Shown piece after piece: positions 26,863-29,871 of a stretch of 64,000 nucleotides of DNA. The notes beneath the pieces were generated by a model that saw only the letters and a program-made list of their open reading frames with translations, ran no database searches and was not told where the DNA came from. Origin of the DNA: Natrialba taiwanensis DSM 12281 (GTDB lineage Archaea > Halobacteriota > Halobacteria > Halobacteriales > Natrialbaceae); NCBI RefSeq assembly GCF_000337595.1, contig NZ_AOIL01000067.1, positions 3,203-67,202 on the forward strand, read 5' to 3'. Position 1 is the first letter of the stretch, and each line of letters opens with the position of its first letter. The translations under genes and the position numbers were made by a program.

Positions 26863-28146
26863 TTATGCCCAGTGACCCACACTCGATTGCTCGTCGTCCG
26901 TATCCTGGGACTCCTCGCTCGCTCCCTCCTCCAGGGGTGCGAGTCGTGAATCACGCAACAGGACCTTCTTCACTATCGACGGATTCTCGAGCAACCGATG
27001 TTTCGCGTGCGCCCCGCGTCCGCGTCCCCGGCCCTCGCGTTCGGACTGGATCACGTTGAGGAAGTTCTGCTCCTGGAGGATCTCCTGCACGCGGCGTTCC
27101 GAGAGCACATCGAAGTCGAGTCGGTTCGCGACTTCCTTGTACTGGTTGTAGATGATCTTCGTCGGGAACTCCTTTTCCGTGCTGTTCTCGGTGAGCAGCG
27201 TCAGCGAATACAGAATCGCTTTTGCCTGCTGTGGCGAACCCTCGATGAGTTCGTTGAACCGGTCGGCTTCGGTCTTCTCTTTGGCGTCGCGGACGTGATC
27301 TGCCGTCACGCGCGTGGCGTTTTGCTTTTTTGCGATCCGACCCGCGTTTCGGAGGATGTCGATCGCCTTGCGCGCGTCCCCGTGTTCTTGCGCGGCGAGC
27401 GCTGCGGTCAGCGGAATTACATCCCCCGAGAGCACGCCGTCGTGGAACGCGTCGCGGCGCTTTTCGAGGATTTCGACCAGTTGATTCGCGTCGTACGGCG
27501 AGAAGACGAGTTCGTCGCGGGAGAGGCTCGATTTGACGCGTTCGGAGAGATGGTCGGGAAAGTCTATCTTGTTCGAGATGCCGATGATGCCGATGCTCGA
27601 ATCCGAGATGCGGCGGTTCTCGCCCGCCCGCGAGAGTTTGCGCAGGACTTCGTCGTCTTCGAGCATGTCGATCTCGTCGAGAATAACGATCGTCACGTCG
27701 GTGCACTGGTCGACGGCTTGCCAGAGGCGTTTGTAGTAGTCGCCGGTGCCCAGGCCGCGGTCGGGAATGGTGATGCCGCTCTGGTTCGAGTCGTTGACAA
27801 TCTGGGCGATCGTCTTGATGATCGACGCCTCGGTGTTCTGTTCGCCACAGTCGATGAAGGCGTACTTTACTGTCACGTCGTCGCGTCGGGCCTCCGAGAT
27901 CACGCGCTTTGTCACCGAGCGCGAGATGAGCGACTTTCCGGTGCCGGTCTTGCCGAAGATGAACAGGTGGTTTGGCTCGCTCCCGAAAATGGCCGGGTTC
28001 AGCGCGTCCGCCACCCGTTGCATCTGCTCGTCGCGGCCGACGATGCGGTCCGGGCCGGGCAGATGCGTGATTTCGAGCAATCGCTCGTCGGCAAAGACCG
28101 GATCGTCGTACCGAAAGAGCGGGTCACGATCGTCGTTGGCGGACAT
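26863..28146 (-). CDS. Orc1/Cdc6 replication initiator
   Basis: 427 residues. The AAA+ part has Walker A GKTGTGKSLIS (about residue 65), Walker B VTIVILDEIDML (about 148), sensor-1 GIIGISNKIDF and the arginine-containing lid region. The C-terminal winged helix (about 310-400) binds origin DNA. These proteins bind ORB repeats and load MCM. Haloarchaea have many orc genes, each often tied to its own adjacent origin. The 0.9 kb non-coding region upstream with four repeats supports this one being origin-linked. The tail is acidic and Ser-rich. Confidence 0.96.
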   Translation of the reverse strand: MSANDDRDPLFRYDDPVFADERLLEITHLPGPDRIVGRDEQMQRVADALNPAIFGSEPNHLFIFGKTGTGKSLISRSVTKRVISEARRDDVTVKYAFIDCGEQNTEASIIKTIAQIVNDSNQSGITIPDRGLGTGDYYKRLWQAVDQCTDVTIVILDEIDMLEDDEVLRKLSRAGENRRISDSSIGIIGISNKIDFPDHLSERVKSSLSRDELVFSPYDANQLVEILEKRRDAFHDGVLSGDVIPLTAALAAQEHGDARKAIDILRNAGRIAKKQNATRVTADHVRDAKEKTEADRFNELIEGSPQQAKAILYSLTLLTENSTEKEFPTKIIYNQYKEVANRLDFDVLSERRVQEILQEQNFLNVIQSEREGRGRGRGAHAKHRLLENPSIVKKVLLRDSRLAPLEEGASEESQDTDDEQSSVGHWA

Positions 28147-28209: not shown

Positions 28210-28347
28210 ATAAGGGCTGTTCGAGCCTCAAGCGCCACAATAGAAGCAGTACGAAGGATAGGACCGGAATAGCCGGCCTCGCGCTTCTAACGACACCCGT
28301 GAGAGCGTGGAAGCACGCACGATGACCCCACGCCCCCGACACCCCCG

Positions 28348-28359
28348 TCGCGGATGTAA
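28348..28359 (+). repeat. Origin repeat copy 2
   Basis: Direct copy preceded by ACACCCCCG, giving a longer ORB-like element from about 28341 to 28364. Confidence 0.8.
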
Positions 28360-28531
28360 ATCCACGACACAGAAGCGCGATCCGAGCGCAAAAACAGGCG
28401 CTGAGAATCCGTTTCCGGAACCGGAGTCAGTCACCTAACTGGCGGAGAATCCGTACGATTTCAGTGATAAAACTAGGAGCAGCGTTTCGACGGTGGCTGG
28501 CGCGGCTGGTACGTCGGGACACACACCCCCG

Positions 28532-28543
28532 TCGCGGATGTAA
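28532..28543 (+). repeat. Origin repeat copy 3
   Basis: Direct copy preceded by ACACACCCCCG. It faces copy 4 across about 70 nt of AT-rich DNA, the classic arrangement of an origin core. Confidence 0.8.
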
Positions 28544-28614
28544 CGCCGAGAGGGGTGGGGTGGTATTCTCGCAAGCCCTTATTTCGGAAAATATGGTGGG
28601 TTTCGAAGCGGATT

Positions 28615-28626
28615 TTACATCCGCGA
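28615..28626 (-). repeat. Origin repeat copy 4, inverted
   Basis: TTACATCCGCGA on the plus strand. On the minus strand it is preceded by ACACACCTGTT, similar to the C-tract flank of copies 2 and 3. Confidence 0.8.
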
Positions 28627-28840
28627 AACAGGTGTGTTGTCACACAGACCCTCCCCACGCAAACGGCGTTACAAACGCGAGGGTGGTGTGTCCCTGTTCC
28701 ACAACGCGACAACATGTTCGCTATCCCGCCGATTTGTGCCTTCGAACGCTTCTTGCGGACGGGAGCGTGGGTTCGATACGGGTGAAAGAGAGGAACACAA
28801 CACGAAAGCGGGAAACGAGACGGTATGAGACAATCTCTAT

Positions 28841-28891
28841 CTAGTAGATCTAGCTAGTCTAGCTAGTCTAGTTAGACTAGAACCGTTCTAG
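28841..28891. repeat. Cluster of eight CTAG sites
   Basis: CTAG occurs at 28841, 28850, 28854, 28859, 28863, 28868, 28877 and 28888, with the 9-mer TCTAGCTAG repeated. CTAG is rare in haloarchaeal DNA and elsewhere in this window occurs only about once per few kilobases. The cluster lies at the edge of the candidate origin. Confidence 0.9.
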
Positions 28892-29085
28892 ACAAGAGAA
28901 ACAGAACACAACAGCCATGAGGGAACACAACAGCCACAAGATATCCGAACAGAAGCCGCCAATACTCTCACGATGGACGACCCGACAGCAACGGCAGTCG
29001 ATCATAACGGCAACTCGACCGCACTAACGAACACGTCACTTTTGACCGCTCGCTCGATACTCTGTACACACCCACTCCAGCCGTC

Positions 29086-29871
29086 ATGACCGACACTCAC
29101 TCCTCTTCGAACGGATCCGACGCATCCACTCTGGACCACCGAACGCCGCCAGCAGTCGCCGTCGTCGACGCCAAATTCTCCGGCAACGTCGGCACCATCG
29201 CCAGGGCCATGAAGAACTTCGGATTCTCCGATCTGCTGCTCGTCGACCCACCAGAACTCGACCCCGACGGCGAGGCCTACGGCTTCGCCGGCCACGCCCG
29301 CGAGGACATCCTCCCGAACGCGACCGAACTCTCCTTCGACGAACTCGTCTCGTCCTACCACACCATCGGCTGTACCGCCGTCACCAACGAAGACGACCGC
29401 AGCCATATTCGATTTCCGTTCTCGACGCCCGCTGAACTCGCCGACCGGCTCCCGACCGTCGACGCGCCGACCGCGCTCGTTTTCGGGCGCGAACGCGTTG
29501 GCCTGACCAACGACGAACTCGCTCGAATCGACGAGATTTGTTCGATTCCAGCGAACGAGGAGTACCCCGTCCTCAACCTCGGCCAGGCCGCGACGGTCAC
29601 GCTCTACGAGCTCCGATCGCTCGCGCTCGAGGCGGACGAGACGCAACTCCCCGATGTCGACCGAGTTCGTGCGTCCGAACAGACGATCGATCGGGTCTAC
29701 GACCAGTGGAGCGAATTACTCGAAACGATCAACCACCCGCCCGAAAAGCGCGAGAAGACGATGCGGATGCTCCGTCGCATCTACGGTCGCGCCGACCTCA
29801 CGGAGCGCGAGGCGAACTCGCTCCTCGGTCTGGTTCGTCGGGCGGCGGAGCGACCGGCGGAACAGGACTGA
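29086..29871 (+). CDS. SpoU-family RNA 2'-O-methyltransferase, TrmJ-like
   Basis: 261 residues. After about 20 acidic residues the SPOUT fold begins with VAVVDAKFSGNVGTIARAMKNFG (motif 1). It continues with ALVFGRERVGLTNDEL (motif 2, about 130) and SIPANEEYPVLNLGQAATVTLYE (motif 3, about 150), which form the knotted SAM site. Length and the C-terminal helical region match TrmJ, which 2'-O-methylates nucleotide 32 in tRNA. Specificity in haloarchaea is by homology only. The gene lies next to the candidate origin and is read away from it. Confidence 0.9.
   Translation: MTDTHSSSNGSDASTLDHRTPPAVAVVDAKFSGNVGTIARAMKNFGFSDLLLVDPPELDPDGEAYGFAGHAREDILPNATELSFDELVSSYHTIGCTAVTNEDDRSHIRFPFSTPAELADRLPTVDAPTALVFGRERVGLTNDELARIDEICSIPANEEYPVLNLGQAATVTLYELRSLALEADETQLPDVDRVRASEQTIDRVYDQWSELLETINHPPEKREKTMRMLRRIYGRADLTEREANSLLGLVRRAAERPAEQD

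What the first reader, a model, noticed from the sequence alone, without database searches (positions are those of the whole stretch)
28841..28891. Eight CTAG sites in 51 bp beside the candidate origin
The tetramer CTAG is strongly under-represented in haloarchaeal DNA and is scattered at roughly one per few kilobases elsewhere in this window, yet eight copies sit in 51 bp next to the orc1/cdc6 repeats. Haloarchaea have an orphan CTAG methyltransferase (Zim-type). In bacteria, a cluster of methylation sites at the origin (GATC with Dam/SeqA) times initiation. An analogous origin-linked methylation switch is plausible here. It could also be a chance AT-rich unwinding element.
Basis: partly seen in the sequence, partly recalled or inferred. 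Interest (0 to 1): 0.75.

Follow-up and report, generated by a model that had tools for sequence, protein, structure and literature searches.

The report
Clustered methylation sites at an archaeal origin
A tight cluster of eight copies of the normally avoided sequence CTAG sits in the easiest-to-melt part of a predicted DNA replication start site of a salt-loving archaeon (Natrialba), is kept in nearly all its relatives although the DNA around it changes, and may let DNA methylation help time replication, an idea first published in 2016 that these comparisons sharpen but do not prove.

Summary
Eight CTAG lie in 51 bp (28841-28891), while the rest of the window has 0.41 per kb, under half of expectation; 20,000 shuffles of the intergenic region never gave more than four in 51 bp. 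The array lies between divergent orc1/cdc6 and trmJ genes, 155 bp beyond five ORB-like repeats, on the least stable DNA of that region. In 43 of 44 Natrialbaceae with this orc1-trmJ arrangement a CTAG cluster occupies the same place; position and count persist while the sequence turns over. In this genome only four places have three close CTAG; two lie beside orc1 genes, the second being oriC1, where CTAGs fill the AT-rich gap between inverted ORBs. At oriC1 of eight of nine haloarchaeal families CTAG is several-fold denser in that gap than in its flanks. Equally unstable DNA elsewhere in the genome never holds more than two per 60 bp. The genome encodes an orphan M.MthZI-type CTAG methyltransferase. 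Blow et al. (2016) already reported CTAG clusters at haloarchaeal orc1 genes and proposed replication control, so this is a new member of a known kind. Methylation control is plausible but unproven: five methylase-bearing Halorubrum-like genomes lack the oriC1 cluster, and some methylase-free genomes keep clusters at secondary origins.

The parts
28841..28891 (.). CTAG array: eight CTAG in 51 bp, start-to-start spacings 9,4,5,4,5,9,11; partly a 9-bp tandem repeat TCTAGCTAG
   Evidence: same-place clusters in 43 of 44 Natrialbaceae orc1-trmJ loci
28823..28882 (.). least stable 60 bp of the orc1-trmJ intergenic region (nearest-neighbour sum -69.0), fifth least stable in the 64-kb window; candidate duplex unwinding element
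26863..28146 (-). orc1/cdc6-family initiator gene, 427 aa
   Evidence: TIGR02928 4e-123, Cdc6_lid, Cdc6_C; 100% identical to Natrialba asiatica over the best segment
28192..28210 (-). ORB-like repeat TTTACATCCGCGATCGATC
   Evidence: kept at about -55 from orc1 in most relatives
28342..28360 (-). ORB-like repeat TTTACATCCGCGACGGGGG with G-string
28526..28544 (-). ORB-like repeat GTTACATCCGCGACGGGGG with G-string
28614..28632 (+). ORB-like repeat TTTACATCCGCGAAACAGG, inverted to the previous one
28668..28686 (+). degenerate ORB-like repeat GTTACAAACGCGAGGGTGG; nearest ORB to the CTAG array
28473..28476 (.). single CTAG inside the ORB array, conserved at about -330 from orc1 in all six Natrialba sequences aligned
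29086..29871 (+). trmJ/SpoU-family RNA methyltransferase gene, divergent from orc1; synteny marker of this origin
   Evidence: TIGR00050 4.8e-53, PF00588; orc1-trmJ synteny in Natrialbaceae

Best explanation
The array is the CTAG-rich duplex unwinding element (DUE) of a predicted orc1-linked chromosomal origin, maintained by selection for a high local number of CTAG sites. Shown here: (i) it coincides with the least stable DNA beside the ORB array; (ii) the cluster is conserved in place and number while the sequence turns over; (iii) the same enrichment lies exactly between the inverted ORBs of oriC1 across haloarchaeal families; (iv) the genome has an orphan M.MthZI-type CTAG methyltransferase. 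Inferred: the sites carry m4C; firing turns them all hemimethylated at once; and their methylation state, read by a protein or acting directly on melting or initiator access, modulates re-initiation, like GATC/Dam/SeqA in logic but with unrelated parts. My confidence is about 0.85 that it is a selected, CTAG-specific origin component, and about 0.45 that methylation-dependent control of initiation is the reason.
For: Conserved clusters, 2-10 CTAG per 100 bp, at the same place in 43 of 44 Natrialbaceae intergenic regions, the window included. Natrialba species keep 8/8/8 or 5/5/5 sites at changed positions. The cluster lies in the least stable few percent of its intergenic region in nearly all (median 1.5% of windows less stable). 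Own-genome DNA of equal instability has 3.5 CTAG/kb and at most 2 per 60 bp. CTAG is the most over-represented tetramer in these intergenics (O/E 2.4) and in oriC1 cores of f1, f4 and the pooled other non-f5 families (O/E 2.8-3.0). oriC1 core versus flank CTAG/kb: 22 vs 2.0 (f1), 19 vs 0.6 (f4), 9-15 vs 0.6-2.7 (six other families). CTAG sites are among the few conserved blocks inside the oriC1 core of 13 Natrialbaceae. Genome-wide triple clusters are strongly orc-associated. MTase: 47% identical to M.MthZI over 346 aligned positions, in 264 of 292 genomes; no MjaI-type restriction enzyme in this genome and in only 3 of 145. In family f5 outside Halorubrum-like g33, MTase+ genomes have 11 CTAG in 8 oriC1 cores, MTase- genomes 0 in 6 (p=0.002, phylogeny not corrected). 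Blow et al. 2016 report CTAG density at orc1/cdc6 correlating with the MTase.
Against: Five MTase+ Halorubrum-like genomes have no CTAG in the oriC1 core, while 12 MTase- ones have 6 in total. Three MTase-free genomes still have triple CTAG 0.4-0.8 kb upstream of secondary orc genes (G065:C3, G169:C3, G185:C3). No methylation data, reader protein or origin-activity data exist for this locus. In Haloferax volcanii the MTase gene can be deleted, and CTAG is dense at only one of the chromosomal origins (PMC5867850). MTase loss, where listed, is confined to one family, so the correlation rests on few independent events. Part of the array is a tandem repeat, so slippage contributes.
Confidence: 0.45

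Rival explanations
1. Melting element only: the array is a DUE selected for low stability and TpA flexibility; CTAG is a structurally favoured word (stacked TpA kinks, palindromic) and methylation is incidental.
For: Array and relatives' clusters sit on the least stable DNA; CTAG density rises with instability genome-wide (0.1 to 5.6 per kb); clusters persist at secondary origins of three MTase-free genomes; H. hispanica's minimal oriC1 is an AT-rich region between inverted ORBs (PMC3936714).
Against: Equally unstable DNA elsewhere has at most 2 CTAG per 60 bp; other AT-rich palindromes are not enriched in these intergenics (TTAA 0.2, TATA 0.9, ATAT 1.2 O/E); oriC1 cores of family f5 have the same GC content (0.48) but no CTAG enrichment over dinucleotide expectation (O/E 1.04).
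Confidence: 0.27
2. Binding array for a CTAG-recognising protein that does not depend on methylation (origin architecture factor, or a regulator of orc1/trmJ transcription).
For: In 13 Natrialbaceae oriC1 cores individual CTAGs, often as oriented CTAGTAA, are conserved blocks spaced 10, 20-22 and 31 bp, as for a protein reading one helix face; phasing z about 10 in that family.
Against: The window array and its homologues show no helical phasing (z -1.3) and no shared extension (CTAGTAA 13 vs TTACTAG 13); outside Natrialbaceae phasing is weak (z 2.3-2.4) and one of eight control words did as well (AGAA z 2.9).
Confidence: 0.2
3. Neutral tandem-repeat slippage or chance in AT-rich intergenic DNA, or a mobile-element scar.
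For: Tandem Repeats Finder finds period 9, 4.6 copies; CTAG is cited as a target of some IS elements (PMC6471742).
Against: Shuffle tests; same-place clusters in 43 of 44 species with varied spacing patterns; no IS-like repeat at the array.
Confidence: 0.04

Closest known systems
CTAG motif clusters at orc1/cdc6 in Haloarchaea with a conserved orphan m4C MTase (Blow et al. 2016, PLoS Genet, PMC4752239, Fig. 6D)
   Same: Same motif, same kind of site (upstream of orc1/cdc6, often several per genome), same kind of orphan CTAG MTase, same proposed role.
   Different: They report motif density around orc1 starts. Here: base-level placement on the unwinding element, turnover with retained count in 44 loci, controls for DNA stability, oriC1 core-versus-flank contrast by family, phasing in Natrialbaceae oriC1, and exceptions to the MTase correlation.
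oriC GATC cluster with Dam/SeqA (Escherichia coli)
   Same: Cluster of palindromic methylation sites at an origin; orphan methyltransferase.
   Different: m4C rather than m6A, CTAG rather than GATC; no known SeqA-like reader; initiator and ORBs are Orc1/Cdc6-type; CTAG is rare genome-wide.
oriC2 of Haloferax volcanii (Ouellette et al. 2018, PMC5867850)
   Same: Raised CTAG density at a haloarchaeal origin; MTase HVO_0794 shown to make C(m4)TAG.
   Different: There GATC is enriched even more and the other origins lack enrichment; the authors doubt a role in replication. Here oriC1 and the orc1-trmJ origin both carry CTAG clusters and the orc1-trmJ intergenics are not GATC-enriched (O/E 1.09).
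oriC1 of Haloarcula hispanica (PMC3936714)
   Same: AT-rich core between inverted ORBs with G-strings is the minimal origin; CTAGs of oriC1 loci across families fall in the equivalent core here.
   Different: CTAG was not tested there; the window's origin has a different ORB type and its CTAG array lies outside the ORB array.

Membership tests
Haloarchaeal CTAG clusters at orc1/cdc6 origins (Blow et al. 2016) | CTAG cluster in non-coding DNA upstream of orc1/cdc6, far above local expectation | tested here: met
Haloarchaeal CTAG clusters at orc1/cdc6 origins (Blow et al. 2016) | conserved at the orthologous place in several species | tested here: met
   43 of 44 Natrialbaceae loci
Haloarchaeal CTAG clusters at orc1/cdc6 origins (Blow et al. 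2016) | clusters at more than one orc1 gene of the genome | tested here: met
   oriC1 at G000:C52 as well
Haloarchaeal CTAG clusters at orc1/cdc6 origins (Blow et al. 2016) | genome encodes the orphan CTAG MTase | tested here: met
   M.MthZI orthologue at G000:C42:21631-22698, 47% identity; no MjaI-type REase
Haloarchaeal CTAG clusters at orc1/cdc6 origins (Blow et al. 2016) | cluster presence correlates with MTase presence across genomes | tested here: inconclusive
   f5 non-g33: 11 CTAG in 8 cores vs 0 in 6; g33: 0 in 5 MTase+ vs 6 in 12 MTase-; clusters at secondary orcs of MTase- genomes
Haloarchaeal CTAG clusters at orc1/cdc6 origins (Blow et al. 2016) | the sites are m4C-methylated | not testable with these tools
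   no methylome data held
orc1/cdc6-linked haloarchaeal replication origin | orc1/cdc6 gene with adjacent inverted ORB repeats bearing G-strings and an AT-rich element | tested here: met
orc1/cdc6-linked haloarchaeal replication origin | initiation activity (ARS or marker-frequency peak) | not testable with these tools
   no experimental data for this locus
Dam/SeqA-type origin sequestration | reader protein binding hemimethylated site pairs on one helix face | tested here: inconclusive
   only the spacing side could be tested: window array not phased; Natrialbaceae oriC1 strongly phased but as one shared arrangement; weak elsewhere

The most novel reading that the evidence does not exclude
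Haloarchaea run an m4C counterpart of Dam/SeqA: CTAG sites kept inside the unwinding element of their main origins, in Natrialbaceae oriC1 on one face of the helix (10/21/31-bp spacing), are read in the hemimethylated state by an unknown protein that blocks re-melting. Clades that loosen their dependence on the methylase lose the oriC1 cluster.
Probability: 0.2. Interest if true: 0.85.

Novelty: new member of a known kind. Interest (0 to 1): 0.5.

Why it matters
How archaea prevent re-initiation at their several origins is open, and no archaeal counterpart of Dam/SeqA has been demonstrated (own knowledge and the papers read here). This locus and oriC1 give short, defined targets (8 and about 9 CTAG in the unwinding element), a single candidate enzyme and natural loss lineages, so the 2016 hypothesis can be tested directly by site replacement and MTase deletion.

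Tried and rejected
Tandem slippage or chance as a full account: rejected by shuffles and cross-species conservation. Low stability alone: rejected as sufficient, since equally unstable DNA has at most 2 CTAG per 60 bp. Helical phasing of the window array: looked for, absent. A DnaA-trio-like 3-nt register: the spacings 9,4,5,4,5,9,11 show none. A conserved gene next to the MTase that might encode a reader: none shared across the order, only neighbours within Natrialbaceae. A restriction partner: MjaI-family enzyme absent from this genome. First guess that plasmid pFV1 carried the reference CTAG MTase was wrong; it is on pFZ1. For the cluster-versus-orc tally some oriC1 gene starts were estimated by hand from partial matches.

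Full report
OBSERVATION. All eight CTAGs are present at the stated coordinates. CTAG is avoided in the rest of the window (0.41 per kb; 26 seen against 62 from a second-order Markov model). Shuffles of the 939-bp intergenic region gave at most 4 CTAG in 51 bp (20,000 shuffles), and shuffles of only the local 91 bp at most 6 (50,000). Part of the array is a degenerate 9-bp tandem repeat, so slippage probably helped to build it.

SETTING. The window comes from Natrialba: its Orc1 is 100% identical to that of N. asiatica over the best segment. The array lies between a leftward orc1/cdc6 gene (26863-28146; TIGR02928) and a rightward trmJ gene (29086-29871). Five ORB-like repeats (consensus TTTACATCCGCGA plus G-string) lie between orc1 and the array, three in one orientation and two in the other. 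The array is 155 bp beyond the last one. It coincides with the least stable 60 bp of the intergenic region and is the fifth least stable place in the 64 kb; none of the other 14 least stable places has more than two CTAG within about 120 bp.

CONSERVATION. 43 relatives in Natrialbaceae plus the window keep orc1-trmJ synteny. All but one, an incomplete MAG locus (L092), have a CTAG cluster, usually 600-1000 bp upstream of orc1, with 2 to 10 sites per 100 bp. The five-ORB layout is kept in most, and the cluster is always on the far side of the ORBs. In an alignment of six Natrialba sequences the array region is one of the least conserved parts, yet three species keep eight sites and three keep five, at different positions. 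In nearly every species the cluster overlaps the least stable DNA (median 1.5% of windows less stable). CTAG is the most over-represented tetramer in these intergenics (O/E 2.4), while TTAA, TATA and ATAT are at 0.2, 0.9 and 1.2. This pattern, site number kept and sequence lost, is what selection for a local number of CTAG sites predicts.

GENOME-WIDE SPECIFICITY. Only four places in this 4.6-Mb assembly have three CTAGs with gaps of at most 14 bp; two are beside orc genes. Over 13 Natrialbaceae genomes, 15 of 35 such clusters lie within 2 kb upstream of an orc gene against 0.33% expected (some oriC1 gene starts in that tally were estimated by hand). Own-genome DNA as unstable as the array (80 windows) has 3.5 CTAG per kb and never more than two per 60 bp.

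ORIC1. The second origin-linked cluster in this genome is at oriC1: nine CTAGs between the inverted canonical ORBs. I surveyed oriC1 in genomes across the order and found a usable inverted ORB pair in 94. CTAG per kb in the gap between ORBs versus the 400-bp flanks is 22 vs 2.0 in f1, 19 vs 0.6 in f4 and 9-15 vs 0.6-2.7 in six other families, but only 3.2 vs 0.7 in family f5, although the gap's GC content is the same. At least three CTAGs occur in 45 of 72 non-f5 cores and in none of 22 f5 cores (relatedness not corrected). In the 13 Natrialbaceae cores the CTAGs are among the few alignable blocks, spaced 31, 10, 20-22, 20 and about 49 bp. That is helical phasing (z about 10), but it is one shared family arrangement; outside the family the signal is weak (z 2.3-2.4) and a control word did as well. 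Four Natrialbaceae genomes have the oriC1-type orc gene without an inverted ORB pair, and there the CTAG cluster is missing too, so the cluster follows the origin element rather than the gene. In Haloarcula hispanica the AT-rich region between inverted ORBs is the experimentally defined minimal oriC1 (PMC3936714).

METHYLTRANSFERASE. The genome encodes a 356-aa N4/N6 MTase 47% identical over 346 aligned positions to M.MthZI of plasmid pFZ1, a characterised m4C CTAG enzyme (characterisation cited in PMC5867850; that the pFZ1 gene is M.MthZI is my own knowledge plus its MjaI-family restriction partner next door). It is in 264 of 292 genomes of the order; the 20 MTase-lacking genomes that were listed all belong to family f5 (8 more are unlisted). 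No MjaI-type CTAG restriction enzyme was found here, and only 3 of 145 genomes have one. No neighbouring gene is conserved across the order. Within f5 outside the Halorubrum-like genus g33, MTase-bearing genomes have 11 CTAGs in 8 oriC1 cores and MTase-free ones none in 6. In g33 the relation fails: 0 in 5 MTase+ genomes, 6 in 12 MTase- genomes. Three MTase-free genomes keep triple CTAGs 0.4-0.8 kb upstream of secondary orc genes. The link with the methylase is therefore suggestive, driven by few evolutionary events, and has exceptions.

MECHANISM. Best reading: a CTAG-rich unwinding element whose sites are substrates of the orphan methylase. Firing would make the whole cluster hemimethylated at once, so that methylation state can report 'just replicated'; a reader protein, or a direct effect on melting or initiator access, would then limit re-firing. 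The DNA anatomy, conservation and enzyme are shown here. Methylation of these sites, a reader and any effect on initiation are inference. The main rival is a melting element in which CTAG is favoured structurally; it is weakened by the stability-matched control and by the f5 cores, but not excluded.

KNOWN OR NEW. Blow et al. 2016 (PMC4752239) already reported CTAG clusters at orc1/cdc6 genes in Haloarchaea, correlated with the orphan MTase, and proposed replication control (the body text prints CATG, the figure legend CTAG). Ouellette et al. 2018 (PMC5867850) doubted this for H. volcanii. The finding is a new, unusually dense member of that known kind. What seems added, as far as the held literature shows, is placement on the unwinding element at two origin types, turnover with retained count, stability-matched controls, phasing in Natrialbaceae oriC1, and the exceptions to the MTase correlation.

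LIMITS. MTase absence rests on E<=1e-70 in genomes at least 95% complete. Stability was a simple nearest-neighbour sum without salt correction. Phylogenetic non-independence was reduced (distinct patterns, family splits) but not modelled. No origin activity or methylation data exist for this locus.

Noticed in passing
L225-L240 (oriC1 of Natrialbaceae), own genome G000:C52 about 67940-68070: CTAG sites in Natrialbaceae oriC1 are spaced 10, 20-22 and 31 bp (helical register), often as CTAGTAA in one orientation only (34 vs 0); not seen at the window's array.
   Followed up: partly
window 28793-28802, 28904-28913, 28923-28932: Three copies of GAACACAACA flank the CTAG array on both sides; not analysed across relatives.
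   Followed up: no
G065:C3:770-788, G169:C3:254797-254819, G185:C3:95224-95252: Genomes lacking the CTAG MTase still have triple CTAGs 0.4-0.8 kb upstream of secondary orc genes, perhaps on acquired replicons.
   Followed up: partly
G003:C1:3489313-3489337 and G023:C1:1314810-1314834: Two genera share a similar non-origin triple, CTAGAATTGTACTAGGACAATCTAG and CTAGATTTGTACTAGCACAATCTAG, possibly a conserved regulatory site.
   Followed up: no
G017:C1, six places (583610, 732756, 1194852, 1235992, 3004975, 3703654): A repeated element carries CTAGTAAGTTCTAGGGTCCTAG or a close variant; it inflates non-origin clusters in that genome and looks like a mobile repeat.
   Followed up: no
L329 (G003:C2:281215-281265): Five CTAGs in 51 bp about 270 bp upstream of a gene that reads like a MATE-type multidrug exporter, far from any orc gene: the densest non-origin cluster seen.
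   Followed up: partly
L339-L342: Four Natrialbaceae genomes (G011, G017, G061, G118) have the oriC1-type orc gene without an inverted ORB pair or CTAG cluster, suggesting loss or relocation of oriC1.
   Followed up: partly
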